Assembly: GCA_020740775.1 (NCBI GenBank)
Contig: JAHEWK010000010.1
Location: 1,674,001 to 1,738,000 of the forward strand
Direction: 5' to 3'
Source: Ilyonectria destructans
Taxonomy: Eukaryota > Ascomycota > Sordariomycetes > Hypocreales > Nectriaceae
DNA length: 64,000 nucleotides
The notes beneath the pieces were generated by a model. That model did no database searches, was not told the origin of the DNA, and saw only the letters and a program-made list of their open reading frames with translations. This document shows positions 31,776-47,785 of the stretch, in pieces; position 1 is the stretch's first letter; every line of letters starts with the position of its first letter. Both the position numbers and the translations under genes were made by a program.

Positions 31776-32890
31776 CTAATCCTGTACACCCATGTACATT
31801 TTGTACAGCGACCTGTGTTGTTCCAAGAGCAGAAGAGTCGCCGCAGTGTGTGGCCCAAGTCGTGCGAAACTAGGAACCCACCCTCTGAATACCCAGCGCA
31901 TACCCTCCGAACGCGTCAACTGCTTTGCCATCCCAAGTATCGACGTTTTACCTCCCTGGCTCATGGTTCTCGTTTTGATCACGTCAATCGGGCTGCAGAT
32001 GGTGGTGGCGATCAAGCTCGCAAGAAGAGATGCTAAGAGCTGCGTGGGCACGCTATCCTTCAACCCGGCATTGGTTATCAAGGCTTGCTTGATCCCGTCG
32101 TAAGATCCAAGTTGACACCCAGTCATGGTACCGGCACGAATAGAATTGGGCAAGACGCCGCGGAAGTATCCTCGTATTCCATCTTGCCTGGCAATGCGCA
32201 CGAGTACATCAACCACGTTGCGATAGTTTTGCCGTTGGTGAGGAGGAAGTGATCTGTCGTTTTGCATGCGGACGTTTGCAATGTCCGCTGGGTTGCCGAC
32301 CAAAGCACCGCATGCCCCAGAGAAGACAGAAGCAGTCAGAAGAATGCTCATTGAGGTCGGCTCATTGTTGGGTCGCGCCGCTCGCTCCTTGATGGATTCG
32401 TAGATTGCGAATCTCGTCGAACCGTACGTTACTGTTTTCGTATCACTTTAGCCATCTAATTTGAGCGAGAACGCTGGTAGGCTTGAAAGGAACCTACATT
32501 GCCTGAGCAGACCTGCAGATAGCTTTGTCCCGAGTTAGAATCTGACACCAAGAGTGAACAGCGTTACCAGATTGCTTACTCCTCGATATAGCCCCGATGC
32601 TCCCTCTTTGCGTAAGATCTGAAGCACCGTTTCAAAGACATTTTTGCGTTCCGATGGTGGTGTAGCTTGAAGGCGAACCTTGACTAAAGACAGACATTGA
32701 TTAGCCTAAACATCACTCGACCGAATGAGGAGAGAGTACCGAGATCAAGTGGGTGCGAGCAGACTACTGCAAGACAAGATGCTGAACCGCCGAACCATTT
32801 AGGATATTGTGTCAACTTTGGAACTGGAGCAATGGAATCTTTGGGAATGGAAACAAGTACGCCCGTTGGAACCTGACTGAGTTCTGACAT
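31776..32890 (-). CDS. Mitochondrial carrier, dicarboxylate (DIC)-like
   Basis: Four exons (32890-32740, 32683-32580, 32522-32498, 32431-31776) give 311 residues. The third exon is 25 nt. Choosing GTAAGC as the donor at 32579 yields the canonical GLYRGLSAGLLRQ block across the splice. Three mitochondrial-carrier repeats are present, with signatures HPLDLVKVRLQ, NPADIANVRMQ and SPIDVIKTR. The RQLTYGSTRFAIYE segment and NPADIANVRMQNDR match the dicarboxylate/oxaloacetate carrier branch. Expected role: exchange of malate, succinate or a similar dicarboxylate with phosphate across the inner membrane. The paired TCGGCT elements upstream are shared with the following CoA-pathway genes. Confidence 0.9.
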
Positions 32891-33222
32891 GACGAGGTTG
32901 GCTTGAGGTCATCGAAAAGAAGTAGATGTAGATGTTTGTGTCGTATAGGAAGTAAATAAGAGCTAACGGCAATTACAACAATGCACTTGTTGCCTTTGGA
33001 TGTATAGAAGTGATTTGATACCCGTAATTGACATTTCATCATGGGACTGCACCGAGTGGACAACTGCTGGAGTCGGCAATATGTACTTCACTTCTACTAG
33101 GCATGTCATATTCGCAAGGACCACGGGGAAATTCTATACGGCTCGCAAATGGGATTCTATGGCTATTTGCTGACATTTGTTTATCGGTACAGGCGATGGA
33201 TTGAGGTGTCGGCAAAGAAACT

Positions 33223-33270
33223 GCTCGGCTTTTGGCTATCCCCAAGGAAGCTCCCAAGTCGGCTATTTGG
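33223..33270 (+). promoter_or_regulatory. Paired TCGGCT elements, carrier promoter
   Basis: GCTCGGCTTTTGG (33223-33235) is followed by CCAAGTCGGCTATTTGG (33254-33270), the cores 34 bp apart, 335-370 bp upstream of the carrier start. The same two-part arrangement recurs at 34267. CGG-containing cores are typical of Zn2Cys6 regulators, and one is encoded in the cluster; the link is inference. Confidence 0.6.
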
Positions 33271-34266
33271 TGCTGGTTCTCTTTCTCTGGAAGAAATACA
33301 GACCATTGCCGACATCTATGTTATTTATTCTCTCAGATAGCAAATTGGAGAAGTCCATGTGCTTGGAAGTTCCTGGAATGTCCAACCACCGAAGATGCCA
33401 TATCAGATGCAGTCCTATATTTCGCATCAACCCTTCATTGAAATCAAGATTAAATTGACGATCTCGCTTATTAACTATGATATAAACAATGTACAGCTGA
33501 CTACAGTAATCTAATCAATTGAATGGAGGCGGCACCCCAAGTCCATGAGATTTCCGAGAAAATCACGTTAAGCAGAGAGTACACCCACTGGATCACTCAA
33601 CTTTCCTAGCTTCTCGTCGCGCCCACTGGTTTTATCTGTGTCGCGAAACCGCCAACCCTTTCGAAGTAACATGGCCGCTGCTCACTACCGTTTTCAGCCC
33701 CTAGCATAATAATAGAGGAGAGGATCTCACGTGGGAGAGCCTCCATGCTCGGTTGATGACTGCGCTTTGAAGAAGATTACAGCCAAGATGGAGGGTGTGA
33801 GAGACATGAAGTAACCAACTAGTTAGTTCCTGATTACGTACCTCGCGCTGAGTCCTTCTTGATATGCAGATACAGCATACAAGGCTTTCAGCAAGGGTGT
33901 CAGGCCCAGGCCCTCAAGCAGAACGATCCCACTTGAGTTTGGGAGGTCAATGCCTATGGCTATTTTGCTCATGATAATAATTATTCTCGAGTCATTTGGA
34001 ATGGTCGCATAGCTAAGACTAATTGCGTGTGCTCCATTCGTGAATCGGATTGCATTGACAGAGCTCTCCCGAGATGGAAGCATCATTTTGCTTAGTGTGA
34101 GCCTTCTGCGATGGCCTACAAGAGGACATCACAGTATGTGACAGGGCCGAATTATTTAAAGATTGTAATAGGCGGCTCCGAAACGATCCTTCCTGTTTCG
34201 TGGTGGTGTGCTGAGAACATCGGCACTGTCGGCACTGGATCCCGATGATGTGTCGGTAAATAAAAC

Positions 34267-34300
34267 GCTCGGCTATTGGAAAACGCCAAGTCGGCTTCTT
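34267..34300 (+). promoter_or_regulatory. Paired TCGGCT elements, acyl-CoA dehydrogenase promoter
   Basis: GCTCGGCTATTGG (34267-34279) is followed by CCAAGTCGGCTTCTT (34287-34300), cores 22 bp apart, about 170-195 bp upstream of the dehydrogenase ATG. Both halves match the pair at 33223 in order and orientation. Confidence 0.62.
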
Positions 34301-34461
34301 TCCACAACCTCCACAACCACAGGCCCTGAGAACGGCGATGCGCCGCCGACTTCCAGAGTCCTGTAAGTCCCATCGAGGAGGCTCTCCGATTAATAAATGA
34401 AGCTTGAGGTTCTATTCTTTGTTGAATTTGAAACATTTCTATTCATCAAATCTCTCCAATC

Positions 34462-35784
34462 ATGTCTGGACCAGCAAACAAGTTCCTGCGATTGAGCCGC
34501 CCGGCTCTTGCCTCTGCCAGATCTTCCTGTGTGCAGAGTGCGCGAAACAATGCCTTCTCAACAACCAGCTCAAGGCAACTCATGGGGCTGGCTGGCTTCA
34601 CAGAAAACCAACTCACAGTTAGAGACGCTGTGAGCCAAGTGTGCCAGGAATTCCCCAACACCTACTGGCAAGAACACGACCAGGAAGAGAAGGACCCCAA
34701 AGAGTTCCATGCTGCACTTGCTAAAGACGGATGGTTGGGAATTGCTCTTCCGGAGTCCCTTGGAGGATCTGGCCTGGGTATCTCGGAGGCCACGATGATG
34801 ATGCAGACCATCACTGAGTCCGGAGCTGGCATGGCTGGAGCACAATCAATCCACGCCAACGTGTATGCGACTCAACCACTCGCAAGATTTGGTTCCAAGG
34901 AGCAGCTGGAGACGACTATTCCTAACATTGTCTCTGGAAAGTGGCGTGTGTGCTTTGGTGTGACTGAGCCTAACGCTGGTCTTGATACCCTTCGCCTAGC
35001 CACCACGGCTAAGAAGAACTCGGACGGATCCTACAGTGTCACCGGCCAGAAGATCTGGATTACTTGCGCTCAGGTCGCCTCCAAGATGATTCTACTGGCA
35101 CGAACTACCCCCTTGGAGGAGGTCAAGAAACCTAGTGAGGGTCTCTCTCTTTTCTCTATCGACTTGAACCGAGACCAGCCTGGTCTCGACATGAGGAAGA
35201 TTAAGAAGATGGGTGGCCGTGCTGTCGACGCCAACGAAGTATTTTTCGACAACTACCAGATCCCTGCCGACTCATTGATTGGCGAAGAGGGCAAGGGTTT
35301 TAAGATGATCCTCCACGGCATGAACGCCGAGCGATGTCTGCTCGCTGGCGAGGCCCTGGGACTTGGATACGCTGCGTTGAAGAAGGCCAGCGATTACGCC
35401 CGTGAGCGAGTTGTGTTTCAGCGCCCGATCGGAATGAACCAGGGTATCGCGCACCCCTTGGCCGATGCTTATATGAAGCTGGAGGGTGCTAAGCTGGCGA
35501 CGTACCACGCTGCCCGACTTTATGATCAGAGCAAAACGGACTCGTCGATTCGCCAGGATGACATTGGCGTTGCCGCAAACAGCGCCAAGTATATGGCCGC
35601 CGAGGCTGCATTTACTGCCTGTGAGCGTGCAGTTCTCACGCACGGAGGAATGGGCTACGCCGTAGAGTACGACGTCGAGAGATGGTTCCGAGAGTGCTTG
35701 GTGCCTCGAATTGCACCTGTCAGCAGGGAGATGATTCTGAACTTTGTGGGCGAGAGGGTGCTTAAGCTCCCGAGAAACTACTGA
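34462..35784 (+). CDS. Mitochondrial acyl-CoA dehydrogenase
   Basis: A single exon encodes 440 residues. The first about 40 are rich in Arg, Ser and Ala without acid, a mitochondrial presequence ending near AFSTTSSRQL. The acyl-CoA dehydrogenase fold is clear: LAKDGWLGIALPESLGGSGLG, the FAD/substrate stretches CFGVTEPNAG and TGQKIWITCAQ, GRAVDANEVFFDNYQIP, and C-terminal LTHGGMGYAVEYDVERWFRE. The C-terminal position that holds the catalytic Glu in most short- and medium-chain enzymes reads RIAPVSREM, with no Glu there. Instead Glu290 in MNAERCLLAGEALG sits on the helix used by isovaleryl-CoA dehydrogenase. Expected reaction: alpha,beta-dehydrogenation of a short, perhaps branched or dicarboxylic acyl-CoA, passing electrons to ETF. 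Confidence 0.9.
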   Translation: MSGPANKFLRLSRPALASARSSCVQSARNNAFSTTSSRQLMGLAGFTENQLTVRDAVSQVCQEFPNTYWQEHDQEEKDPKEFHAALAKDGWLGIALPESLGGSGLGISEATMMMQTITESGAGMAGAQSIHANVYATQPLARFGSKEQLETTIPNIVSGKWRVCFGVTEPNAGLDTLRLATTAKKNSDGSYSVTGQKIWITCAQVASKMILLARTTPLEEVKKPSEGLSLFSIDLNRDQPGLDMRKIKKMGGRAVDANEVFFDNYQIPADSLIGEEGKGFKMILHGMNAERCLLAGEALGLGYAALKKASDYARERVVFQRPIGMNQGIAHPLADAYMKLEGAKLATYHAARLYDQSKTDSSIRQDDIGVAANSAKYMAAEAAFTACERAVLTHGGMGYAVEYDVERWFRECLVPRIAPVSREMILNFVGERVLKLPRNY

Positions 35785-36017
35785 GATGATGATGCCAAGG
35801 AGTTGGGGAAAACATAGAACACGTGCTTAATATACCAAAATAGAATAAGTATTTCGCAGCTTGACTGATAAACCATTGGTTACTGAAGTCGCTTGACCCC
35901 TTGACAATCCGTGTTGATGACTACTACATTGTGGGATTTCGCACTCACAGACCCTGGTGTCCAACATAGAAAATCCATGATAATCAGTGAAAATTACCAC
36001 AGGTCACTCGCCACTAA

Positions 36018-36437
36018 GGCCCTGATCCGCAGAGACGGTAGACGGTAGACGTTAGAGGTACTTCCGGCGTGCATAATAAGCCCGGCCGTACCGGAGGTAC
36101 CTCTCATCGCTAGTTGTGCAGATAAGCCCAGCCCCCTATAGCCCGCTGTAACGAGCCCCCTGTAGCCGCTGTAACAAACCCCCTGTAGCCGCTGTAGCGA
36201 GCCCTCTGTAGTTGCTGTAGGGAGCCCCCTATAGCCCTCCATAACCTAAAAAGGCTAACTCTTTAGAATAATATAAAGAAATTTATAATAAAATCTTTAA
36301 ATTACCTTCTATTATATATCTATCTATCATAATTTTATTTACCTTTTTAGATATTTATTTCGCTTTATTATACTATATTCTATAGCTAACATCTACCGTC
36401 TACCGTCTACCGTCTACCGTCTCTGCGGATCAGGGCC
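36018..36437. mobile_element. MITE, PIF/Harbinger-like, 420 bp with TAA duplication
   Basis: The ends are inverted copies: GGCCCTGATCCGCAGAGACGG at the left and its exact reverse complement at the right, extended by GTAGACG tandem units (about 36 bp in all, more units at the right end). The element is flanked by TAA on both sides (36015-36017 and 36438-36440), a 3-bp target duplication of the TWA type known for PIF/Harbinger elements. It has no coding capacity. The interior is a GC-rich minisatellite (36130-36245) followed by an AT-rich half. The near-identity of its ends suggests recent insertion. Confidence 0.85.
36130..36245. repeat. Minisatellite inside the MITE, period 23, five copies
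   Basis: Units start at 36130, 36154, 36177, 36200 and 36223. The common form is agccccctgtagccgctgtaacg with a few changes; the first unit is 24 bp. It lies wholly inside the MITE. Confidence 0.85.
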
Positions 36438-36752
36438 TAATTGTCGGCAATCGAGAACGCTTTGTTCATCGTGAACTGCTTCGAGTTAAGCGTAGCTGGA
36501 CTCCGGGTCTTAGTCTCGGTTACTTCTCCCGAAGAAAAGTGGACCGGCCGAAAGAAGATGCCCCGCCCCGAAGGTCTCCCCGACGGAGTGGCCGGCTACT
36601 CAACGCATATAAGCGGGACGTGGACGTGGACACTGAACACTCTCGAGCCGTTTCTGAAATTGCTGAGCGTCAAGTGCCCGGTCACTTACACACCAGACTT
36701 ACACACCAGACTTACACACCACAGCGCTGATTCGCGCCGACGCTGACCCGCC

Positions 36753-39263
36753 ATGTCCCCAGCGGAAGTGCCCTTAGAGGAAGTGCCCCCAAATGCAGAG
36801 GGCCAAGAGCCTTCGCAGAGTCCTCCCACTGACGGCATCCCTGCTAAACGGGCTCGGGCGAAGCATGCATGTCGGGATTGCAATTCTCGAAGGGTGAGGT
36901 GCAACGTCACTGAGTCCCACCCTTGTTCAAACTGCCAGGCTTCAGGGGCCAAATGCGAAGTGCTGCCGTCTCGGAGGGGGAGGTTAGTATCCTATGAGAT
37001 TCGGGGAGTACTCATAGCCCAAAACAAAAATTGATGGTTTTAGGTATCCCCGGAGATCACGTCGCCAGAATCAATCAGTTCAGGCGAAGGATCCCGGCTT
37101 GCCTTCGAACACAGCTGTTGATGATGGGATCACTTTGTCCTCCATCGATTCAATCCCACCTGTTCCAACACTGGGAGGCGACTCGATCACCAGCCCACTG
37201 CTAAATAAGAATGTCTTCGATGCTAGACTTCCTGCTAGGACACCATCGCCACCAACCGACTCGGCGGCGCCCGGATCTCTGTTCTTTGGCGAATCCAATT
37301 TTCTGACTCTAGTGCCTGGTCGTCCTCGCCATGGCGATGGACCGAACCAGAATGATGACGCAAACGGGAGCAAGCAAAAAGCTCGCCTTCTGTTTCCCAT
37401 CACTAGCACGCCCCAGTCAATTCCCGAGGGCGAATCTCCTGCCAGCTGTGACCGTGTCAGCTCCGGAACAGCGCGATATCTCCGCGACGAAGGTGCATTG
37501 ACACTGCCGGATCTGCACACCTGTGTGCCAGCACTGCAAGCTTACTTTACCTGGTTTCATCCTTGCTTTCCTATTCTGGATCGTGCGGAGTTCACGCGTC
37601 GACTGGCAAGCTTTGATGTTTCCTATCTTCTCCTCCAGTCCATGCTCTTTATCGGCGCGACTTATTGCGATCATGATACCATTGTCTCAATGGGGTTCCA
37701 GGACCGTTCTGAGGCCAAATCACTGTTGTATACGCGAGCTAGGCTTTTGTTCCATGCGGATTGGGAAAAGGATGAAATCACCCTGATTCAATCCCTGTTT
37801 CTCATGAGCTTTTGGCGAGGCGGCCCATCGGATGTCAGAGATGTCCGGTATTGGTTGGGCGTGGTCATTGGGGTGGCCGAGTCGTATGGACTCCACCGAT
37901 CGTAAGTTGCTATCGCTTCGATAACATCCAAAACCACTAGCTAATTAATATTCCAATAACAGCGCCAAGTTTACAACTCGGGATACCCATCGAGCAAGAA
38001 TAAGAAGAAGGATATGGTGGTCTATTTATGTAAAAATGAATACTCCTTGCTGCTGTACACTTGCTAATCATAATAAAAAGGTTCGTGAGCGCCAGGCCGC
38101 TGCTTCACTCGGTTTGCCTAGCAGGATCCGAGATGATGACTGTGACATTGAGCCGCTCAGTCCCTCGGATCTCGAGTCCGAAGTAGCTAACAACGAGACC
38201 TCTCACTTTGGATCTTGCAAGCCAGAGCATATCCAATATGTAATCAAAATGGTGGAAATTGCCAGAATACGTAAGTGGTTGTCCCAATGCCATCCATCAT
38301 ACAAACCCTAACTAGTGAGTAGTCGGCCAAGTCATCGATGTTCACTTCTCCCCCGGAAGGCCACCGTCAACCCTAGAACAAGTTCGGAATCTTGATCAGA
38401 CTCTCGAGACTTGGAAACAAAGTCTCCCAGATGAGTTGGGCCGTGGCGTAGATGATGGGAATGCCTCGGTGTGGTCACAACTTCTACACCTGGCATACAA
38501 GTGCGCCACCCGCCTATTGAGTAGCAAAGAAATCCTGGCTAATGGTTTCAAAGTCATATCCGAATTCTCATCCATCGCCATAGCTTCCTGAAACAAAAGA
38601 AGGAAGATGGCAATGGCCAGATTGCTGTGGCCGCTGCTTCGCGAATTAGCCGAATCGCAGAGGACATGTTGGCGCAGGGGACGCTCCGCTATGGACAGAT
38701 GCATTTGTGAGTTGCTATCCCATGCGAGCAATGACCACGAGATTGGATATTCTGACTCAATTATTAGGATCACAAGTCTGTTCGCCGCGCTTTGCATTCA
38801 TGCCATCAGCATAAAAAGAGGCGTCGATGTCACCCGACGGATCGCAGAGCACAGAGCCCAGATGTGTTTACTGGCCCTCCAGGAGATACAGAAATACTGG
38901 AGGATCAACAACAACCTGCTTGACTTGTTCCTCCAATATCTCGACGTCTCGATTGCCAAGCGAATCCACGGCACAGGCCAAGTCGAAGGCATGATGCACA
39001 CCATGCCCATTCTGGACCCGCAGTTGATTGGAGAAAACCAGGAAGATGGCCGCCAGACTACTCCTGCGCCAGAAGGCGGGGAGCGGTATGACTTCCCGAC
39101 ACCGCAGACACAGGCCCAGACGAAGGCCTTTGAAGACCAATACTTCAATATGCTTTATGGGCCTTGGGAAGGCGATGATGGCGTGGCTGATCTGGGACTG
39201 GTTCTCCAAGCCGATGACCCCCTGCAAATGGATTGCCTCAACTTTTTGGGCCGGTCTCTCTAG
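36753..39263 (+). CDS. Zn2Cys6 transcription factor of the CoA-pathway cluster
   Basis: Seven exons (36753-36982, 37044-37901, 37963-38029, 38081-38270, 38320-38500, 38554-38706, 38768-39263) join in phase to 724 residues. The DNA-binding cluster CX2CX6CX7CX2CX6C begins CRDCNSRRVRC near residue 45 and is intact, followed by a basic linker. The fungal-specific regulatory domain (about 200-560) is recognisable: FTWFHPCFPILDRAEF, RRIWWSIYVRERQAAASLGLP, LHLAYNHIRILIHRH and GQMHLITSLFAALCIHAI, the order seen in the cutinase factor 1 (CTF1/FarB-like) group. Two of these blocks become continuous only with the introns given here. Position inside the cluster suggests it controls the neighbouring genes; its CGG-type target could be the shared TCGGCT element. 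Confidence 0.88.
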
Positions 39264-39571
39264 AGTCAAACCCGAGTGTCGGGAATGGTTCCCGGTGGTA
39301 AACCTTCGGTTTCTTCGGCTACTTGAATCGTTAAATAGCCGAGAGCCAAGCTCCACACCTCCGGATCCCCACTGGGGCTGCTCCGGTGGCGTCAAAAGCT
39401 CGCATCTATACTATCATCGAATGGTTCGGTTACCTGGAGCAATCTGGTTCTATTAATCCTGCAAGGTCGCCTTTACTTGCGCCTCTAATAAGTTCTAGAG
39501 TCAACTGGATCACTGGAAATTGATCAAATATCCTCAAGCCGTAGGGATAAGCATAGTTGATTGAGGAAGAC
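39264..39571. other. Short intergenic region upstream of HTD2-like gene
   Basis: 308 bases between the regulator's stop and the next start. It carries the inverted TCGGCTA pair described separately and nothing else recognisable. Confidence 0.6.
39311..39345. promoter_or_regulatory. Inverted TCGGCTA pair, HTD2-like gene promoter
   Basis: TTCGGCTACTT (from 39314) faces AAATAGCCGAG (to 39343), so two TCGGCTA cores lie as an inverted pair about 230-260 bp before the HTD2-like start. The cluster's other promoters mostly carry direct copies or single copies. Confidence 0.6.
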
Positions 39572-40693
39572 ATGGCGCAATCCACGACTCTTTGCCAAGC
39601 CCGTCGCCGGCTGGTTCATCAATTGGCACGAGCACAGCGCCGCGGCTTTGTGGCCTCATCCCGATGCTACAAAGCCACCGCCGCTGAGGCCGCCTCTTAT
39701 CTTCTTGAGAATTTCGCCGAAAAGTCTGTTGTTCGTCGACAGTTTATCGACGGAAACCAGCTCCAGAAGTTGCTCCTTACGCTTGGTCAAACATCCATTC
39801 AAGGTGCAGACGTCTCTGAAGTCCCCCCAGTTGCCGGAACGCCAGTGCCGCAAGGCTATCACCTTGCGTACTTTACCCCGAATGGCACGGAGAAGGAGCT
39901 TGGAGCAGATGGTACTGACCGGACATTCAATACGTCGGCTCCATTCACGCGGCGAATGTGGGCTGGTGGAAAGATGAAGTGGCCAGCTCCGTCCAGCGGC
40001 GCCTTGCTTCGCGTTGGAGACGAAGTCGAGGAACGAACACGTCTTGTCAGTGCCACAGCCAAGAAAAGCCGATCTGCGGGAGAGATGGTTTTAGTCGAGG
40101 TGGAAAAAGAATTCTGGGGCCCCAACGGGCTTGCTCTTGTTGATCAGCGGTCCTGGGTCTTTCGACCTGAAATTGACCCTGAGACTGCGCCCCCGGCCCC
40201 GAAACCCCTTGCAGATGTTACTCGCGGGCCTTCTTCAGGGAAGGACTTCACCAATAATGGCGATGGTGAGATTTCAATTCCTATACTATTGTGTGGTATG
40301 CTAATACACCTAGACTTCCTAACTCGAGAGCTTCGATGGTCTCCTGCCGGCCTCTTCAGATTCTCGGCCCTCACCTTCAACGGTCATATGATCCACTACA
40401 ACGAAGACTGGACCCGGAATGTAGAGGGCCACGCTGGCTTGGTAGTCCATGGCCCGCTGAACCTCATCAACCTCCTGAACTACTGGAAGGATGTTCATGG
40501 TAATGGCGAAGGCCCCAGTAGTATTTCATACCGGGCAATGGCACCACTATATGCCGGCCAGACTTATCACATCAAAACCTCGGATGTCAGAGATACTGAC
40601 AATGGCAAAGTGTGGGATGTTGTTGTTGAGAAGGATGGAGTTGTTTGCATGAAGAGCGAGATCTCGAGCCAAAATTGGTGTACAATCCAGTGA
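39572..40693 (+). CDS. Mitochondrial HTD2/MaoC-type acyl-CoA hydratase (mesaconyl-C4-CoA hydratase-like)
   Basis: Start ATG at 39572; a likely 48-nt intron (40266-40313, GTGAGA, GCTAAT branch site, CCTAG) gives 357 residues, or 373 if it is retained, because the intron is a multiple of three without stop. The first about 45 residues are rich in Arg, Ala and Gln without acid, a mitochondrial presequence. The N-terminal half is the divergent hot-dog domain (MWAGGKMKWP near 125), the C-terminal half the catalytic one with FSALTFNGHMIHYNEDW and GLVVHGPLNL. The family includes yeast Htd2 (3-hydroxyacyl-ACP dehydratase) and bacterial hydratases acting on mesaconyl-, itaconyl- or citramalyl-CoA. Next to a CitE-type lyase, a hydratase role is the better guess. 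Confidence 0.85.
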   Translation: MAQSTTLCQARRRLVHQLARAQRRGFVASSRCYKATAAEAASYLLENFAEKSVVRRQFIDGNQLQKLLLTLGQTSIQGADVSEVPPVAGTPVPQGYHLAYFTPNGTEKELGADGTDRTFNTSAPFTRRMWAGGKMKWPAPSSGALLRVGDEVEERTRLVSATAKKSRSAGEMVLVEVEKEFWGPNGLALVDQRSWVFRPEIDPETAPPAPKPLADVTRGPSSGKDFTNNGDGEISIPILLCGMLIHLDFLTRELRWSPAGLFRFSALTFNGHMIHYNEDWTRNVEGHAGLVVHGPLNLINLLNYWKDVHGNGEGPSSISYRAMAPLYAGQTYHIKTSDVRDTDNGKVWDVVVEKDGVVCMKSEISSQNWCTIQ

Positions 40694-40791
40694 TGGCACA
40701 ACATAGAAAGTCACGATGACGCTCCTTGGTGATGTTAAATGAGGAGAGGTTGATCTGAATAATATTACCCAGTATCATATTCCGTGATTTG

Positions 40792-41825
40792 CTACTCAAA
40801 CTCCGTAATATCAATACCACACAGCTGTGCCCGCTCAAGCAAGGCCAATGCTCGTTTCACAACCGGTGCATCAATCATCTTCCCATCCAACTTCCATGCA
40901 CCTTTTCCCTCTGCCCTAGCAGCCGCATCGCCCTGCTGAACCCTCACCGCCCACCGTAGGCTTTCCCCCGATGGGCTAAATGCCTTCTGGACAATCTCAA
41001 CCTGCAGAGGATGGATGCACTGCTTTCCTGTAAACCCAAGAGCACGACCCTCCAGACTGTCATGTTCGAGAGCAGCCCTTGACTCCTCGTCTGACGGGAC
41101 GCCTGTAGATACCAGATCGATAACGGAGGGCAAGTTGTGCGCTAATGCTGCAGTGACGAGGGAACTCCGTGCAAAAAGTAGCTCCCGCCGATCTGGAAGT
41201 CGTGACAACCCAAGCTCGGTTGCAAAGTCTTCGGCGGCGAATGCAAGGCCCGACAAGCCCGTAGTCGGCGCCGCTCGGCAGATGGAGTTAATGTCAGAGA
41301 GGCCTCGGGCAGATTCGATAAGCGCGAGAATGTTGAGAGGGCGAGAGGTGGTCTTCTCAGAGGTCGGGGGTTCGGAGCCATTGAACTTCACTGATCGATG
41401 TGGAGCTACATGGCGCACAATGTCGGCGACAAAGTGAAGATCCTCAGGACCCTGGACTTTAGGAATAACAATCGTGTCGAGGTTATCTCCCGATTTCAAG
41501 ATCTCTGTGAGGTCCTCAAGAGCTAGTCCTGTATCAACGGCGTTGATTCTCACAGCCACCTCCCTTGGAGACCTGGAAGTGCTGCTCATCGAAGTATCCG
41601 CAAGATGTCGTGCAACGAGCCCTCGTGCCGCAGCCTTGGCGTCGGGCGCGACGGAGTCTTCAAGATCGTATATCACTGAGTCAATTTTGAGAGCTTGTGT
41701 CTTTGCGAGCATCTTCTGGGACGCTCCCGGGACTGATATGGCCGTTAGTAACTGGGCAAGTGGGGATGCATTTTCCAATTACCGTAGAGAAGCGCCCGGC
41801 GAAGGAGAGATGGGGCGGTCGCCAT
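40792..41825 (-). CDS. CitE/HpcH-type acyl-CoA lyase (citramalyl/malyl-CoA lyase-like)
   Basis: Two exons, 41825-41783 and 41732-40792, separated by a 50-nt intron (GTAATT, CTAAC branch, ATCAG), encode 327 residues. The short first exon supplies the only ATG and completes the family start RRALLYVPGASQKM. Core motifs: VIYDLEDSVAPDAK (metal and phosphate site), RINAVDT, VIPKVQGPEDL, LNILALIESARGL and GFTGKQCIHPLQV. Members split beta-hydroxyacyl-CoA thioesters such as citramalyl-CoA, malyl-CoA or methylmalyl-CoA into acetyl- or propionyl-CoA plus pyruvate or glyoxylate, Mg2+-dependent. It converges on the hydratase gene with a 98-bp gap. Single TCGGCTA element 120 bp upstream. Confidence 0.9.
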
Positions 41826-42214
41826 TATTAGGATTTTTATGACATAGATAAATGAGTATTTTCGATCAAAGTTTTCTCACTGATTACAAGAATCTCCTGG
41901 TGATATATGGCTTGTTCGGTTAAGTCCTAAGGCGCGGCAGGCCAAGTCGGCTATATGCGACTGGCTGTTCCCAACAACGGCCTCAAACACTAGACATGGT
42001 GTGAAGAAGAGGGTCCATTATATAATTTCGTTTAGGAAGATGATAAATCTGAATTATAACGGCGAGATACGGAGACCGATAGAACATGTCCTGATGCCAC
42101 GAGAAGACACGGAACTTAGGGCATGATGAGCAAGGTTACTCTGATGATTCGCTATCTAGAATTGCGACAATGTACGCAAATAAAAAAAATTACAAGCTAG
42201 CGCGATGCTATCAA
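41826..42214. other. Intergenic region, lyase promoter side
   Basis: 389 bases between the lyase start and the 3' end of the E1 gene. It holds the CCAAGTCGGCTATAT element and no gene. Confidence 0.55.
41942..41956 (+). promoter_or_regulatory. CCAAGTCGGCTATAT element, lyase promoter
   Basis: The first eleven bases, CCAAGTCGGCT, are identical to those in the carrier and dehydrogenase promoters. It lies about 120 bp upstream of the lyase ATG. Confidence 0.6.
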
Positions 42215-45200
42215 TCATTCTTTTACAGAAAATGCATCTTCCAGCAGTTTCTTCTCCTCCGCCTCATGTACCTTCTTCCAACCAGCCGCGGGACTCGCAC
42301 TCGGCGCCCGTCCAGCATACAACAATTTTCTACCCGCAAGGTAGTCCGACTTCCGCAGCACGGCATCCAGGCGGTCGCGGATATAATGCCACGCTCCGCC
42401 GTTGTAGTGTTCTTCCTGGGCCCAGACCACGCTCCGAGCGCTGGGGTACTTGTCTAAGTTGGCCTTGGCTTCGCGCCAAGGGAAGGGGTGCAGCTCTTCA
42501 ATTCGCGTAATGGCGGTGTCACGGAGGCCGAGAGTTGCCCGCTGTTTTACCAAGGAGGCATAAATCTGACCTGAGCAGAAGATGACGCGGGAGATGTTCT
42601 CTGGGTTCTCGATCTCACCGGCCTCATGTGCGGGATCGGCGAGGACAGACTGGAAGGTAGCAGAGGGGTCGGTGAACTCCGAGATATCGGATTTGCAAAT
42701 GGGATGGCGAAGAAGGGATTTAGAAAAGAAGATAACCAAGGCTGTGTGAGTTTGTTAGCACTATATTTCCGACATGTATTTATGCGGCTGTCCACTTACG
42801 TTTTCGGAACTCCCTCTTGAGCTGTCGACGAAGCACATGGAAGTAGTTGGCAGGAGATGTCATGTAAACAATCTCCACATTACAATCCTGATGCGCTCGG
42901 TCAATTCTGCTCTCATCAGTCGGCCATGACCGTCCCTCCTCATTGCACATAAGCAAGAAACGCTCCAGTCGAGCAGAGGAGTGCTCAGCACCCTGCCCAT
43001 CAAAGCCGTGAGGCAGAGACAAGACAAGACCAGACCGGTCAAGCCACTTTGACTCGCCCGCAACGATGAAGTTGTCAAGGATGACCTGTGTGTTGTTGGC
43101 AAAGTCACCGAATTGGGCTTCCCACATAACCAGGGGGTTCGGGTCTGCGAGCGTTACTCCGTACTCGAAGCCGAGCGCGCCAAACTCACTGAGAGGCGAG
43201 TTGGTAGCCTGGAAACGGGCTTGGTCGGGAGAAAGGTTGCTGAGGGGTGTCCATGTTTCACCAGTGGTCTGGTTGTGCAGCACCGAGTGTCTCTGAGAGA
43301 AAGTTCCGCGCTGAACGTCCTGTCCGGTGAGGCGTACTGAATGGCCGTCAAGGCAGAGTGTTCCAAAGGCCAGAGCCTCAGCCGTGGACCAATCGACAGA
43401 GCCTTCTTCGAAACTAGTAAGTCTGCCGGCGAGAATGCGTTTGAGGTTTGGGTGTAGCTCAAATCCCTCTGGCACGCTACTGACTTTGTTGGCGATGGGC
43501 TCTAAGATAGAGTGCTCAACTGCAGTGGGGGTAATGGGAAACTGTTCAGACGCCAGAGCAGTCGGCGAAGGAAGGGATTCCCAAGCAGGGGGAAACTCTT
43601 TTCTCTCTGAGATGTATGTCTTGCTGGTCTCAAAGTTCTCGTTTAGACGATCCCAGACCCATTTCTTCTGATCCTCAATCTCGGTAGCAGTGAATGTGCC
43701 CTCATTCACAAGCTTGTTGACGTATGTCTCCATGGTAGGGGTTTGGCTAGAAACGTTCTTGTACATCATGGGCTGGGTGAAGGTAGGCTGGTCAAATTCG
43801 TTGTGGCCGAACTTGCGGTAACAGACGAGGTCGATGACAATGTCTTCTTGGAACTCGGCCCTCCAGTCGGCAGCAAGCTGGCACACAAAGGTGACAGCCT
43901 CCACATCGTCGGAATTGACATGGAGGATGGGTGCGTTGATGTACTTGGCCAGATCAGAGGCATATGGAGTCGATCGCGAACACTCCACGTCGGTGGTGAA
44001 GCCAATCTGGTTGTTGACGATGACTCTGATGGTACCGCCGACATTGTAATCGTCAAGCCTTGACAACCCGAGTGTCTCATACACAACACCCTGGCCTGAA
44101 AAGGCGGCATCACCATGCAGCGCAAGGCACATGGTGCGCTTCCGTTCCTTGTCGCCTTGGAGTTCTTGCGTGGCGTATGCAGAGCCGGTCGCCACAGGAT
44201 CGACAGCCTCAAGGTGTGATGGGTTGGCTAGGAGGGAGAGACCAACGCGACGACCATCGGGTGTAATGCGATGGCCGTCATGCCCAAGGTGGTACTTGGC
44301 GTCGCCAGCCATGCCAGGGAGATCGGTCTTTACACGCCCGGCAAACTCAGCAAGAATCGCCTCCCGAGGCTTTCCATAGACCGTTCCCATCATGGTCAAT
44401 CTCCCTCGGTGACAGCTGCCGATGATGATGTCTTCGATGCCATGTACATCGGCACTTCGGTCAATGATGGAGGTAATACCCGGAGCCAGTCCCTCAGCAC
44501 CATCAAGACCGAAACGCTTCTCAGTAGGGAACTTGGTCGCAATGAACCGCTCAAAGCTGGTGCTCCAGAGCAAACTATCGAGGATCCGTCGCTTTTCGTC
44601 TTGCGAGAACCGGAATGGAGTTGGCACCTCGAGTCGTTTGCGAAGCCACTCACGCTTCTTGGACTCGGGAATATGCTGGTACTCGACGCCAAAGTTTCCA
44701 CAGTAGACAGACTCACAAGCGGCCACGATCTCGCGCAGAGTCATGGATTCACGCCCCTCGGATGCGAATTGGGGCAAAATATCCGGGTCCAGGGCGAATT
44801 GGCGATCCAGGTCGGTAGTTGTGAAGCCATGGTAGGCAGGGTCAAGTTCCCTGGGATGCCCAGCGTGAATGCCTTGGCCATTCTTGCGGAGACCCAAGGG
44901 ATCAATGTTGGCGATGTGATGGCCCTGGGACTGATATGCAGAAACAAGTTGGACAACCTTGAGATAATCCTTGACTTGGCTAGTCTGTGTTCCTTGGTTG
45001 AGACTAAATCCGGATTTCAAGGCTGGATCCCGGGATGAGAGGAAACCTGGTGGTAGCTGAACCGCCTGATCTGGAGACTTGGACTTGTCTTCCATATTTC
45101 GGAAGTAAGTGCGCCAGGAGACGTGCACAGAATCTGGGGCGAGTCTCCAGGATTCATACATCGCATCAATATACGAGGCTGCAGAACCCTCAAGGAACGA

Positions 45201-45478
45201 CTCATCTACCGTCTTTGGATTATTCAGTCAGCTAACACCCACAACTTATGTGATATTCTCCTGGAATCAGTTAAACTTACAGGCGCCGAAACAGCTGGTG
45301 CCTGTGCCTCAGCTTCCGCCGTCCCATAGCTTCTGTTGCCAGCGACGCTGGGCGAATCCCGAGAAAACCTGCTTGGATTAGAAGTGGTAGAAACGCATCG
45401 CAGCGGTTTCGCTCTCTGGAGCGCCGCGCGTGCAAAACTTCTGCTGGCCGCAGTAATGGGACGTGCAGTTCGCAACAT
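42215..45478 (-). CDS. 2-oxoglutarate dehydrogenase-like E1 component (paralogue)
   Basis: Three exons (45478-45281, 45212-42800, 42741-42215) give 1045 residues, full length for an OGDH E1. The first about 45 residues are Arg/Ala/Ser-rich, a mitochondrial presequence. Family landmarks: VDESFLEGSAASYIDAMYESW, HRGRL, GDAAFSGQGVVYETLGLS, the thiamine diphosphate stretch VNNQIGFTTD, FGHNEFDQP, RGTFSQRHSV, VMWEAQFGDFANN and the C-terminal WAQEEHYNGGAW. Several usually invariant spots differ: IIIGSCHRGRLTMMGTVYGK where housekeeping E1 has a GMPHRGRLNVL-type block, and HVNSDDVEAV for the usual HVNADDPEAV. It most likely decarboxylates 2-oxoglutarate or a related 2-oxo acid and hands the acyl group to the adjacent E2. 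I consider it a specialised paralogue rather than the TCA-cycle copy. Confidence 0.9.
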
Positions 45479-46288
45479 GGCGACGACGAGGGTTTTAGAA
45501 TTACAGGTTCAATTAACAGAGGGCTTCATCCATAAGGAGCCATGAAGACGCGATGATGATAATGAGTGGACAACAACAATAAACCACGAGACATGAGTTC
45601 GCTCGGGGAAGATGATCTAGCGGGATCGGGATACCAAGCCGTTCCGCGGTAATGGGCTGGAGATCCACGGCAATGCCATGGTACCGACATGAAATCGGCT
45701 TCCATATATGGAGTCCTGCCGTTCTCTGATGGCAACTCGGAACCTGGGTACTCGGCCAAACGTGTAAGTGACGGGATAGAGGCTCGGGTAGAGACCACGC
45801 TCAGTGAGAGGGCCTAATATCAGCGAATCAAGAGCGCATTTCGGCTGCGACATCCGAGGGTCGAATGGCGCCAAGGGGCTCCACATGGAAGTACAGCCCA
45901 GCCGGTATCTTGATTGTTGAAGTAGCCGACTTTGCGGGAATCGACAGTAGACCAGACAATTGAGATTGCATTGGAGTAGCTGTAAAATGAGTTGCATCCT
46001 ACGCAATTGACAAGGGTATCCGGATGATTCGGTCGGTTGTCATGATGGACACGATGGTAGACAACTCATAACTTAGACGGCCAAACTAACATGAAAATGG
46101 GAAGCAAAAACACGATCATCTTCGATTGCATTATCTACCATTTGTACGAAAAGCGCCGGTCCATGCAACACCCAAAACAATACACTGTTTTCTGTCTAGT
46201 TTATGAAGCCACCCAAGCCGTCCCTTTCACGCGCAAATGCTAGAATACAAGGTTGTTGTTCCCATTTGGGGAAGTTGGTAGGTGTTGC
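45479..46288. other. Intergenic region, E1 promoter
   Basis: 810 bases between the E1 start and the E2 stop, both transcribed leftward. It carries the AAAGTCGGCTACTT element at 45921-45934 and no gene. Confidence 0.55.
45921..45934 (-). promoter_or_regulatory. AAAGTCGGCTACT element, E1 promoter
   Basis: Read leftward, in the sense of the E1 gene, the site is AAAGTCGGCTACTT, sharing AAGTCGGCT with the carrier, dehydrogenase and lyase promoters. It is about 445 bp upstream of the E1 start. Confidence 0.55.
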
Positions 46289-47785
46289 TTAAACAAGAAG
46301 CATTCGAGAGGGGTCCTCGATGTACTTCTTGACAAGGTTCAAGTAGGTGACGGCTTCCCGGCCATCGATTAGACGGTGGTCGTAGGTCAAGCTGATGTAC
46401 ATCATCTGGACAAGGAGTTTGGTTAGTGGCTAATATTCAAGGGTATTTCATGTTGGACATACCGGTCGGATTTCGGCCTGGCCGTTGATGGCCATGACGC
46501 GCTGTTGGATTCCGTTCATGTTGAAGACGGCGGCCTGGGGGTAGTTGATGAGGGGAGTTCCAAACATGGAACCAAAGATACCAGGGTTGCTGATGGAGAA
46601 GTTGCCTCCCTCGAGGTCGTCCAAGGTCAGCTTGCCATCGCGAGCCTAGTGCGGACACGTATTAGCTCTTGTGAATCTCAAACATTCCCCCTTTGTTTGC
46701 TTACCTTCTTGGCCATGGTAGCGACGTCCCGCTCCAGCTCGACGATGCTCAGGGCGTTTGTGTTTCTCAACACAGGAGTGACGAGACCCTTGGGCGCGGA
46801 AACGGCAATGCTGATGTCGACGTAGTCGCGGTAGGTGATGATCTCCTTCTCAGTGTCGATAGCAGCATTGATCTGGGGTACCTGCTGGGCAGCAAGGGTG
46901 GTGGCCTTGGTGAAAGCTCCCATGTATCCCAGGCGAACACCGTGCTCTTCGGCAACCTCGTCGCGGTACTTGGCGCGCCAGGCCATTAGGTTGGTCATGT
47001 CAACTTCCTGCATGGTGGTGAGCGAGGCGCAGGTGTTCTGCGACTGCTTGAGGCGGCTCGCAATCGTTTTTCGCATACGGGTCATCTTCTCCTGTTTGGT
47101 GGCCCATCGTTAGCTCTGGTGGCATAGAGAGGCCACTGCTTGTATGACTTACAACTCGCTCTCCTCGGGAAGGGCCTGCGGATGTTGAGGCAACGGGCTG
47201 GGATTGCGCCGGCTGAGCAGCGGGCTTGGCCGCGGGAGCGGAAGTAGCAGGTTTGGGAGCTTCAGGAGCAGGAGTCTTGTCCTCGACCTTGGGCTGGGCG
47301 GGTTCGGCGGCCTTCGTCTCCTGCTGAGGAGGAGGAGCTTCTCCCTCGGGCTTCTTGACAGCACCAGCGTCGCCGCCAGTCACAATGCGGGCGAGGTCCT
47401 GGCCAACAACAACGGTATCACCCTCGGCGACGAAGTATTCGGCAATGACGGCGGTCTCGGGGGCGTTGACAGCGACGTCGATCTTGTCCGTCTCGATGCT
47501 GGCGATCTCCTCGTCGGCCTCGATCTGCTCGCCGACCTTCTTGGGCAACGAGGCCAGGGTTCCCTCGCTAATGGACTCGGCCATCTGGGGCACCTTGACA
47601 ATGATGTCGGCATAGCGGGCAGCCGAGCCGCTGAAGAGGCGGCGCTGGGTGTCAATTGCGCCGCGCTGGCACAGGAGGGCGCTGTGGGTGAGGGCGGCCA
47701 CACGCTGCGCCGGCAGCATCTTGGGGGCGGCGCGCGACAGGCCCAACAGGCCGGTCGCGGCCTTCATTCGCACAGCGGACGCCAT
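46289..47785 (-). CDS. Dihydrolipoyl succinyltransferase-like E2 component (paralogue)
   Basis: Four exons (47785-47153, 47091-46705, 46645-46463, 46405-46289) give 439 residues. Residues 1-57 are an Arg/Ala-rich mitochondrial presequence. A single lipoyl domain follows, with the lipoylated Lys101 in ETDKIDV, then an Ala/Pro-rich hinge (about 145-210) and the catalytic domain, with His411 and Asp415 in DHRLIDG. As in OGDH E2s there is no clear E3-binding domain. It departs from the conserved TCA-cycle sequence in [22 protein letters not shown] and [10 protein letters not shown], where housekeeping proteins have GGVFGSLMGTPIIN and LGMHAIKDRP-like text. Lying directly upstream of the E1 gene on the same strand, it probably forms a dedicated complex with it, sharing the cell's common E3. 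Confidence 0.9.

What the first reader, a model, noticed from the sequence alone, without database searches (positions are those of the whole stretch)
31776..47785. A mitochondrial CoA-thioester catabolic gene cluster of unknown substrate
Seven adjacent genes form a chemically coherent set: dicarboxylate-type carrier, acyl-CoA dehydrogenase, Zn2Cys6 regulator, HTD2/MaoC-type hydratase, CitE-type lyase, and an OGDH-like E1 plus E2. Seen: the genes and their order, the presequences, and shared promoter elements. Known: these families catalyse 2-oxo acid decarboxylation to acyl-CoA, dehydrogenation, hydration, and aldol-type cleavage. Inferred: they act in series, for example a C6 branched 2-oxo-dicarboxylate to a methylsuccinyl-CoA-like ester, an unsaturated ester (mesaconyl or itaconyl type), a hydroxy ester (citramalyl or methylmalyl type), then acetyl- or propionyl-CoA plus pyruvate or glyoxylate. 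Fungal itaconate breakdown uses a hydratase and lyase of these kinds, but adding a dedicated E1/E2 and a dehydrogenase would be a different, longer route. No CoA-transferase is present, which fits CoA entry through E1/E2.
Basis: partly seen in the sequence, partly recalled or inferred. Interest (0 to 1): 0.88.

Follow-up and report, generated by a model that had tools for sequence, protein, structure and literature searches.

The report
Fungal branched-acid pathway with own oxoacid dehydrogenase
A soil fungus related to Ilyonectria keeps seven neighbouring genes, including a private second copy of a central-metabolism enzyme complex, that together look like a mitochondrial route for breaking down a branched acid into ordinary building blocks.

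Summary
The cluster is real. Seven intact gene models at 31,776-47,785: DIC-type mitochondrial carrier, acyl-CoA dehydrogenase (ACAD), Zn2Cys6 regulator, mesaconyl-C4-CoA-hydratase-like HTD2 protein, CLYBL/CitE-type lyase, OGDH-type E1 and E2. The E1/E2 are not the only copies: a housekeeping-type E1 (54% identical) and E2 lie on other contigs. The window E1 belongs to an old paralogue clade (support 100/100) with a fixed, altered signature (GSCHRGRLT, not GMPHRGRLN) beside both substrate histidines. Linkage recurs in part of the other fungi listed (locus tags, contigs, merged gene models). The same genome holds a sister cluster (C35) with paralogous lyase (77%), hydratase (67-70%), carrier and regulator, but succinyl-CoA-ligase-like and fumarate-reductase-like genes instead of E1/E2 and ACAD. 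Both clusters share the intergenic motif TCGGCTA. Best reading: E1/E2 turn a 4-substituted 2-oxoglutarate (4-methyl or 4-methylene) into methylsuccinyl-C4-CoA or itaconyl-CoA, then ACAD, hydratase and lyase give acetyl-CoA and pyruvate. The lower half matches the bacterial methylsuccinate/itaconate pathway (PMC12290011). I found no such E1/E2 entry in the papers listed. The substrate is unproven; a rival is that E1/E2 merely supply succinyl-CoA.

The parts
31776..32890 (-). Mitochondrial carrier of the DIC/OGC/UCP branch, 311 aa, 4 exons (32890-32740, 32683-32580, 32522-32498, 32431-31776)
   Evidence: Model; PF00153 E 1.5e-61 with 3 stretches; nearest solved are uncoupling proteins, with 2-oxoglutarate/malate carriers weaker. 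'DIC' is a recalled type name. One acceptor (ACAAAG) is not a typical fungal one.
33203..33268 (.). Promoter module between carrier and ACAD: composite TGTCGG..CTCGGCTTTTGG (33207-33235) plus CCAAGTCGGCTATTTGG
   Evidence: composite found at only two places in the genome
34246..34302 (.). Second copy of the promoter module (composite 34251-34279), about 160-220 bp upstream of the ACAD start
34462..35784 (+). Acyl-CoA dehydrogenase, 440 aa, single exon; Glu290 (MNAER) at what I take to be the IVD/LCAD-type base position, no Glu at the MCAD-type position (IAPVS from 417); the base assignment is recalled
   Evidence: H.MN.ER in 119 of 120 listed relatives, exact PRIAPVS in 87 of 120
36753..39263 (+). 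Zn2Cys6 transcription factor, 723 aa, 7 exons
   Evidence: Model; PF00172 and PF04082; 54% over 506 aa to the TF part of a merged E1-TF model in Fusarium avenaceum
39572..40693 (+). HTD2-like hot-dog hydratase, 357 aa, 2 exons (39572-40265, 40314-40693)
   Evidence: 97% to a protein named mesaconyl-C4 CoA hydratase in Ilyonectria robusta
40792..41825 (-). CitE/CLYBL-type acyl-CoA lyase, 327 aa, 2 exons (41825-41783, 41732-40792)
   Evidence: PF03328 E 8.5e-42; best solved match 5vxc (citrate lyase subunit beta-like, mitochondrial) E 1e-45 against malyl-CoA lyase 5ugr 2e-27
41942..41961 (+). CCAAGTCGGCTATATGCGAC motif upstream of the lyase
42215..45478 (-). OGDH-type E1 (ThDP), 1,045 aa, 3 exons (45478-45281, 45212-42800, 42741-42215), paralogue-clade signature GSCHRGRLTM and KYHLGH
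46289..47785 (-). E2 dihydrolipoyl acyltransferase, 439 aa, 4 exons; lipoyl Lys in ETDKID (E2 residues 98-103), catalytic YDHRLIDG from residue 409
   Evidence: catalytic part 82% to the E2 half of the Clonostachys protein P0021, against 58% between own housekeeping E2 and window E2
48134..48142 (+). CTCGGCTAT motif upstream of E2

Best explanation
The seven genes encode a mitochondrial route for a branched C6 2-oxodicarboxylate, most likely 4-methyl-2-oxoglutarate and/or 4-methylene-2-oxoglutarate, as would arise by transamination of 4-methyl- or 4-methyleneglutamate. The carrier brings the dicarboxylate in. E1/E2 with the shared E3 decarboxylate it to methylsuccinyl-C4-CoA (from the methyl acid) or itaconyl-CoA (from the methylene acid). 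The ACAD oxidises methylsuccinyl-C4-CoA to mesaconyl-C4-CoA. The HTD2-type hydratase makes citramalyl-CoA. The CLYBL-type lyase splits it to acetyl-CoA and pyruvate. The Zn2Cys6 protein regulates the set through TCGGCTA-type sites. Shown: gene content, intact models, clade-specific E1, recurring linkage, sister cluster, shared motifs. Inferred: every reaction, the serial order, the regulator-site link, and the substrate.
For: (1) E1/E2 are a dedicated paralogous pair. Housekeeping-type E1 is at C6 (54% identity) and E2 at C34. The E1 paralogue clade is separated at 100/100 by a long branch from 19 canonical fungal OGDHs, which include the own C6 copy. (2) Of 26 fixed diagnostic E1 positions, 6 lie within 10 residues of the two substrate histidines (H334, H374) against 1.1 expected (P 5e-4) and 8 within 15 (P 1e-4); positions 332 and 339 are M and N in the E. 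coli and human enzymes. (3) By motif, the residues that adapt human DHTKD1 to the longer 2-oxoadipate (PMC7340257, passages) are OGDH-like here (F300, Y373, F471, E809), which suggests a C5 backbone. (4) Linkage in other fungi. (5) Sister cluster C35: same lyase, hydratase, carrier and regulator, but succinyl-CoA-ligase-like genes and a fumarate-reductase-like enzyme in place of E1/E2 and ACAD, as if CoA entry were an exchangeable module; the TCGGCTA motif is found there too, 8 against a mean of 0.69 (max 3, 0 of 300 shuffles). (6) Bacterial precedent for the lower half: methylsuccinyl-C4-CoA dehydrogenase, mesaconyl-C4/itaconyl-CoA hydratase and citramalyl-CoA lyase act in series, and succinyl-CoA synthetase can activate itaconate (PMC12290011, sections 6, 12, 14 part 1). 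(7) Analogous architecture in bacteria: beside 38-39% ACAD relatives in L043 and L045 lie E1 alpha, E1 beta and enoyl-CoA hydratase genes (Pfam), with an E2 next to the ACAD (Pfam in L043; tblastn in L043-L045). That E1 is of the two-subunit, not the OGDH, type.
Against: No activity, expression or metabolite data. The histidines are kept, so plain 2-oxoglutarate remains possible. Nearer bacterial relatives of the ACAD (51-56%, 7 of 14 loci) sit in mixed contexts: a CitE-type lyase lies next to the ACAD in 5 of the 14 loci, but the window hydratase and E1 match nothing in any of the 14. Of four annotated plasmid loci viewed, Diaphorobacter has a CoA-ester lyase next to it, Roseomonas and Paracoccus CoA-transferases, Paraburkholderia ETF and transhydrogenase genes; in Cupriavidus metallidurans the ORFs, read by eye, show no hydratase or lyase. 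Similarity to PA0879 itself was not tested. Many Fusarium species list ACAD and hydratase linked with no E1 paralogue of that species in the listed hits, so E1/E2 may be an add-on. In six species whose E1 and HTD2 are both listed they are on contigs of different length, so E1-HTD2 linkage holds in 4 of 10 such species (two contigs of one length are taken as one contig). The lyase and ACAD fall far below NCBIfam equivalog cut-offs. The cluster-A motif count is inflated because the motif was picked there.
Confidence: 0.45

Rival explanations
1. The cluster degrades free itaconate or methylsuccinate. The E1/E2 pair is an inducible 2-oxoglutarate dehydrogenase that supplies succinyl-CoA as CoA donor for a transferase encoded elsewhere, or that keeps the TCA cycle running under such acids.
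For: Sister cluster C35 carries succinyl-CoA-ligase-like genes, whose ordinary product is also succinyl-CoA. Type III CoA-transferases exist in the genome, one SUGCT-like beside the ACAD paralogue on C56. Bacterial clusters use itaconate CoA-transferase (PMC12290011).
Against: Fixed substitutions flanking the substrate histidines over the whole E1 clade are not expected for a plain isoenzyme; no transferase seen in the cluster; a housekeeping-type OGDH is already there.
Confidence: 0.22
2. Same logic with a larger substituent: alkyl-substituted 2-oxoglutarates, alkylsuccinates or alkylitaconates of fungal secondary metabolism are degraded to acetyl-CoA plus a longer 2-oxoacid, or to pyruvate plus a longer acyl-CoA.
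For: E1 changes near the histidines include two from bulky to small, canonical M to S at 332 and F to G at 379; the ACAD seems to have the IVD/LCAD-type base position (assignment recalled).
Against: No PKS, FAS or alkylcitrate-type gene was noticed by eye among the listed window ORFs, which were not scanned by HMM for this; the lyase most resembles CLYBL, a citramalyl-CoA lyase (recalled).
Confidence: 0.12
3. One carbon longer: 4-methyl-2-oxoadipate to 3-methylglutaryl-CoA, 3-methylglutaconyl-CoA and HMG-CoA, cleaved to acetoacetate and acetyl-CoA.
For: A Mycobacterium tuberculosis enzyme serves both itaconate dissimilation and leucine catabolism (PMC6689899; title and start of abstract in a listing; that it is CitE-like and cleaves HMG-CoA is recalled). 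The ACAD paralogue on C56 sits near an HMG-CoA-lyase/enoyl-CoA-hydratase ORF and a SUGCT-like transferase.
Against: E1 keeps the OGDH-type residues that DHTKD1 changes for 2-oxoadipate; relatives of the hydratase are named mesaconyl-C4 type; C56 already carries its own set.
Confidence: 0.08
4. Unbranched route: 2-oxoglutarate to succinyl-CoA, fumaryl-CoA, malyl-CoA, then glyoxylate and acetyl-CoA.
For: All enzyme classes are present and need no unusual substrate.
Against: Lyase nearer the CLYBL structure than malyl-CoA lyase (E 1e-45 against 2e-27; NCBIfam 137 bits RipC against 71 malyl, all below cut-off); little metabolic point beside the TCA cycle; altered E1 signature.
Confidence: 0.06
5. 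Neighbours by chance: an isoenzyme pair next to an unrelated itaconate-type cluster.
For: E1 and HTD2 are on contigs of different length in 6 of 10 species in which both are listed; many species keep ACAD and hydratase with no E1 paralogue listed.
Against: E1 and HTD2 exactly two loci apart in 3 of the 6 species with both tags printed, and on one contig in a fourth species; F. avenaceum E1-TF and Clonostachys E2-E1 merged proteins; motif upstream of E1 and E2.
Confidence: 0.05

Closest known systems
Bacterial itaconate/methylsuccinate degradation cluster (Pseudomonas aeruginosa, Cupriavidus necator; PMC12290011)
   Same: Acyl-CoA dehydrogenase, mesaconyl-C4/itaconyl-CoA hydratase and citramalyl-CoA lyase in one cluster, ending in acetyl-CoA and pyruvate
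   Different: There CoA entry is by itaconate CoA-transferase (or succinyl-CoA synthetase) from the free acid, plus an MmgE/PrpD isomerase; here neither was seen in the cluster and an E1/E2 pair is present. The bacterial proteins themselves were not compared with the window's.
Fungal itaconate degradation IctA-IchA-CclA (Aspergillus terreus, A. niger; PMC6862759, passages)
   Same: Hydratase and lyase classes; mitochondrial location given for A. niger
   Different: In A. niger the three genes have widely separated locus numbers (An07g00760, An07g09220, An01g08610); 'acyl-CoA dehydrogenase' does not occur in the text and 2-oxoglutarate dehydrogenase only as a TCA-cycle row
2-Oxoglutarate dehydrogenase complex (KGD1/KGD2)
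   Same: E1 and E2 domain architecture, ThDP and lipoyl motifs, E1-E2 pairing
   Different: 54% identity, separate old clade, GSCHRGRLT/KYHLGH instead of GMPHRGRLN/KYHLGM, clustered with catabolic genes
2-Oxoadipate dehydrogenase DHTKD1
   Same: An OGDH paralogue used for a different 2-oxodicarboxylate
   Different: Window E1 scores higher to OGDH (804 against 601 bits) and keeps OGDH-type pocket residues; it also has its own E2
Sister cluster on contig C35 of the same genome
   Same: Lyase 77%, hydratase 67-70%, carrier 49% (main segment), regulator 33%, shared TCGGCTA sites
   Different: Succinyl-CoA-ligase-like genes, a fumarate-reductase-like FAD protein and an aldehyde dehydrogenase instead of E1/E2 and ACAD
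Bacterial operon-like sets beside distant ACAD relatives (L043, L045; E2 and ACAD also in L044)
   Same: 2-oxoacid dehydrogenase E1 and E2, enoyl-CoA hydratase and ACAD side by side
   Different: Two-subunit E1, crotonase-type hydratase, no CitE-type lyase found; ACAD only 38-39% identical

Membership tests
Bacterial itaconate/methylsuccinate degradation cluster | Dedicated CoA activation of the free acid (Ict, or succinyl-CoA synthetase) | tested here: not met
   No such gene among the ORFs of at least 100 aa and models of 31,776-47,785; succinyl-CoA-ligase-like genes are in sister cluster C35 instead
Bacterial itaconate/methylsuccinate degradation cluster | Itaconyl-/mesaconyl-C4-CoA hydratase | tested here: inconclusive
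   97% to a protein so named in Ilyonectria robusta, FN.H.IHY[ND] motif in 104 of 120 listed relatives; no NCBIfam hit; the name need not rest on experiment
Bacterial itaconate/methylsuccinate degradation cluster | (S)-Citramalyl-CoA lyase RipC/Ccl | tested here: not met
   RipC model 137 bits, cut-off 375; nearest solved structure is animal-type CLYBL, itself a citramalyl-CoA lyase (recalled)
Bacterial itaconate/methylsuccinate degradation cluster | Methylsuccinyl-C4-CoA dehydrogenase | tested here: inconclusive
   51-56% to bacterial ACADs in mixed contexts; PA0879 itself not compared
Bacterial itaconate/methylsuccinate degradation cluster | MmgE/PrpD methylsuccinate isomerase (saprophyte type) | tested here: not met
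   No eighth gene recognised among ORFs of at least 100 aa in the cluster; no PrpD profile was run
TCA-cycle 2-oxoglutarate dehydrogenase | E1 and E2 domain architecture with ThDP and lipoyl motifs | tested here: met
TCA-cycle 2-oxoglutarate dehydrogenase | Sole or orthologous KGD1/KGD2 copy | tested here: not met
   Other copies at C6 and C34; separate clade for E1
TCA-cycle 2-oxoglutarate dehydrogenase | Preference for 2-oxoglutarate | not testable with these tools
   Needs enzyme assay
2-Oxoadipate dehydrogenase (DHTKD1) | Tyr190, Ser263, Tyr370, Asp707-type substitutions (PMC7340257) | tested here: not met
   F300, Y373, F471, E809; positions matched by motif, not by structure or by a printed alignment to DHTKD1

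The most novel reading that the evidence does not exclude
Hypocrealean fungi keep a second, old OGDH-type complex dedicated to 4-substituted 2-oxoglutarates, clustered with carrier, ACAD, hydratase, lyase and regulator. This makes a complete mitochondrial route from 4-methyl-/4-methyleneglutamate-type compounds to acetyl-CoA and pyruvate, in which CoA entry is a swappable module (E1/E2 in one cluster, succinyl-CoA ligase in its sister).
Probability: 0.35. Interest if true: 0.76.

Novelty: new variant of a known kind. Interest (0 to 1): 0.62.

Why it matters
If true, it is a further kind of OGDH-type complex in eukaryotes besides OGDH and OADH, with a signature readable from sequence, and a fungal way of using branched dicarboxylates that enters through oxidative decarboxylation rather than a CoA-transferase. 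It gives clear, cheap tests (one ThDP enzyme, a few candidate 2-oxoacids), and it flags proteins now named '2-oxoglutarate dehydrogenase' in Hypocreales as possibly something else.

Tried and rejected
HTD2 as the mitochondrial fatty-acid-synthesis dehydratase: rejected as the likely reading, since a separate more distant relative sits at C2:826360-827375 (31-40%) and is the better candidate. E1 as 2-oxoadipate dehydrogenase: rejected on score and pocket residues. Third lyase copy at C1:3829500 (48%) as part of a further cluster: of the seven window proteins only the lyase matches in the 30 kb fetched there at E up to 1e-4, so it is the likely stand-alone CLYBL/CclA. Bacterial origin or context of the ACAD: contexts are mixed and not decisive. 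Literature: 4-methyl-2-oxoglutarate and kin, methylsuccinate with fungus, mesaconyl-C4-CoA hydratase, itaconate with Fusarium, itaconate clusters with ACAD or OGDH: no listed title or abstract start describes an E1/E2 in such a cluster. Parapyruvate inhibition and E1 histidine mutants: 0 papers. Linkage could not be checked by reading other fungal genomes, none being held; locus tags, contig lengths and merged models were used instead.

Full report
WHAT IS THERE. The window is G000:C2:1,674,001-1,738,000 of a 71.7-Mb, 74-contig genome. Protein matches place it in or beside the fungus Ilyonectria: HTD2 97% to I. robusta, E1 93% to Ilyonectria sp. MPI-CAGE-AT-0026. Seven intact gene models were built: carrier 32890-31776(-), ACAD 34462-35784(+), Zn2Cys6 factor 36753-39263(+), HTD2-like hydratase 39572-40693(+), lyase 41825-40792(-), E1 45478-42215(-), E2 47785-46289(-). 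Pfam agrees for all but the hydratase, which reaches PF13452 at 21.8 bits against a cut-off of 22. E1 keeps its OGDH-type domains, including the N-terminal one; E2 keeps the lipoyl lysine and the YDHRLIDG motif. Four proteins have basic, nearly acid-free leaders; lyase and carrier do not.

E1/E2 ARE NOT THE ONLY COPIES. The genome holds another OGDH-type E1 at C6:937538 (54% over the main segment) and another E2 at C34 (45-66% by segment). Of 121 E1 sequences aligned (window plus the 120 best of 7,811 hits), 27 including the window carry GSCHRGRL, 93 carry GMPHRGRL, and one (P0011) lacks the stretch. In a 43-row tree the 24 paralogue rows and 19 canonical rows separate at 100/100, with the own C6 copy nested among canonical Sordariomycete enzymes and a long branch between. 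Three paralogue rows (P0024, P0077, P0113) are long-branched and their exact place is unsure. The duplication therefore looks old, or the paralogue evolved fast. Named paralogue rows are all Hypocreales except Plectosphaerella (orders recalled); four rows are unnamed.

ALTERED ACTIVE-SITE NEIGHBOURHOOD. 26 positions are fixed differently in the two groups (at least 95% and 97% within group). Six lie within 10 residues of the two histidines equivalent to E. coli H260 and H298 (numbering recalled; alignment), 1.1 being expected, P 5e-4; eight within 15, P 1e-4. The histidines themselves are kept, so a dicarboxylate remains likely. Residues that distinguish human DHTKD1 (2-oxoadipate) from OGDH (PMC7340257, passages read) are OGDH-like here. 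I matched them by motif, not by structure.

LINKAGE ELSEWHERE. No other fungal genome is held, so I used locus tags and exact contig lengths of the 120 listed hits in each of three searches (E1 120 of 7,811; ACAD 120 of 8,000; HTD2 120 of 3,742). Each row stands for a cluster of proteins and shows one name. Sixteen contig lengths are shared between the ACAD and HTD2 lists, four between the 27 E1 paralogue rows and HTD2, one between E1 and ACAD (119 of 120 HTD2 rows transcribed). E1 and HTD2 with tags of one prefix: 6 species; exactly two apart in 3 (Neonectria punicea, Stylonectria norvegica, Tolypocladium paradoxum), far apart in 3 (F. sarcochroum, F. torreyae, F. oxysporum f. sp. albedinis). 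Thelonectria olida has both on a contig of one length; Plectosphaerella plurivora, Purpureocillium lavendulum and P. takamizusanense on different ones. So E1-HTD2 linkage holds in 4 of 10 species, all four outside the F. oxysporum-type E1 branch. E1 and ACAD are three apart in F. lateritium. Merged gene models add adjacency: F. avenaceum E1 followed by a regulator 54% identical to the window's; Trichoderma evansii carrier followed by E1, the carrier being nearer to the C56 carrier (49%) than to the window's (31%); two Clonostachys rosea proteins E2 followed by E1 in one frame, the E2 catalytic part of P0021 82% to the window E2 against 58% to the own canonical E2. Whether the Clonostachys fusion is real or an annotation merge is open.

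SISTER CLUSTER. On contig C35 (stretch 176,000-216,000) lie a lyase (77%), hydratase (67-70%), carrier (49% over the main segment) and regulator (33%) paralogous to the window's, within about 19 kb, with an aldehyde dehydrogenase, a fumarate-reductase-like FAD protein and succinyl-CoA-ligase-type beta and alpha pieces between them. The alpha piece scores just below the Pfam cut-offs (23.9 against 24.5; 21 against 22.3), and exon models were not built there. No E1, E2 or ACAD match was found in that 40 kb (E up to 1e-4). The simplest reading is a common core (carrier, hydratase, lyase, regulator) with different front ends. A third locus, C56 around 641-661 kb, has the nearest ACAD paralogue (57%), a carrier, a SUGCT-like type III CoA-transferase, a thioesterase-like ORF (recalled type) and an HMG-CoA-lyase/enoyl-CoA-hydratase ORF.

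BACTERIAL RELATIVES OF THE ACAD. Fourteen loci came from one scan. In 5 of 14 a CitE-type lyase follows the ACAD directly; the window hydratase and E1 match in none of 14; E2 matches in 3 (L043-L045), directly before the ACAD. In L043 and L045 the genes before it are E1 alpha, E1 beta and enoyl-CoA hydratase, and the L043 E2 is confirmed by Pfam. So bacteria also put a 2-oxoacid dehydrogenase complex next to a hydratase and an ACAD, with a different E1 type. Plasmid loci viewed (5 of 25 listed, 220 found) show mixed neighbours.

SHARED SITES. TCGGCTA occurs 7 times in 4,921 bp of cluster intergenic sequence (shuffle mean 0.55, max 3, 0 of 300 reach it). That motif was picked from this cluster, so the fair test is C35: 8 in 8,911 bp of intergenic sequence, mean 0.69, max 3, 0 of 300. 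Controls of the same genome: 3 in 30 kb, 2 in 20 kb, 0 in 20 kb, 6 in the 47 kb of window outside the cluster, and 1 in 10 kb of C56. The region upstream of the regulator itself has none. The 29-bp composite before the carrier and ACAD is found only at those two places genome-wide at up to 3 mismatches.

MECHANISM. In bacteria the ACAD of the itaconate cluster is a methylsuccinyl-C4-CoA dehydrogenase giving mesaconyl-C4-CoA, hydrated to citramalyl-CoA and cleaved to acetyl-CoA and pyruvate (PMC12290011: abstract and sections 6, 12 and 14 part 1 read). By structure, the 2-oxoacid whose oxidative decarboxylation gives methylsuccinyl-C4-CoA is 4-methyl-2-oxoglutarate; 4-methylene-2-oxoglutarate would give itaconyl-CoA, which the bacterial hydratase also accepts. 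That is inference. 3-Methyl-2-oxoglutarate would give the C1 ester and need a methylmalyl-type lyase, which fits the CLYBL-like lyase less well. Natural sources such as 4-methyleneglutamine in legumes and tulips are recalled, not looked up.

CLAIM OF NOVELTY. In the held library, searches listed no title or abstract start on an E1/E2 pair in an itaconate- or methylsuccinate-type cluster. Only the passages and sections named were read. Subscription papers are missing.

VERDICT. Observation confirmed, interpretation partly supported and sharpened; substrate unproven.

Noticed in passing
window 36009-36446: A 438-bp MITE-like element in the regulator's upstream region, with 48-bp inverted arms (92%) and internal 23-bp tandem units; it matches itself and six other places in the genome at 67-82%, some as separate pieces.
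   Followed up: partly
L043, L045 (E2-ACAD also L044): Bacterial sets of 2-oxoacid dehydrogenase E1 alpha, E1 beta, enoyl-CoA hydratase, E2 and ACAD side by side; substrate unknown to me.
   Followed up: partly
G000:C56:641000-661000 (L069, L070): A third dicarboxylyl-CoA-type locus: carrier, ACAD (57% to the window's), SUGCT-like CoA-transferase, thioesterase-like ORF, second ACAD, HMG-CoA-lyase/enoyl-CoA-hydratase ORF.
   Followed up: partly
P0021, P0023 (Clonostachys rosea): Single predicted proteins with lipoyl, E2 catalytic and OGDH-type E1 domains; if real, a eukaryotic E2-E1 fusion of a 2-oxoacid dehydrogenase complex.
   Followed up: partly
window about 29433-31272 (+): A cytochrome P450 in several ORF pieces directly left of the cluster (PF00067 in one piece); no sign that it belongs to it.
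   Followed up: no
window about 25350-27370 (-): An MFS transporter (PF07690 in one piece), possibly an organic-anion importer, left of the P450.
   Followed up: no
L025-L028 (C35 sister cluster): The sister cluster lies on a small contig (270 kb) with transposase-like ORFs nearby, judged by eye, so it may sit in an accessory region.
   Followed up: no
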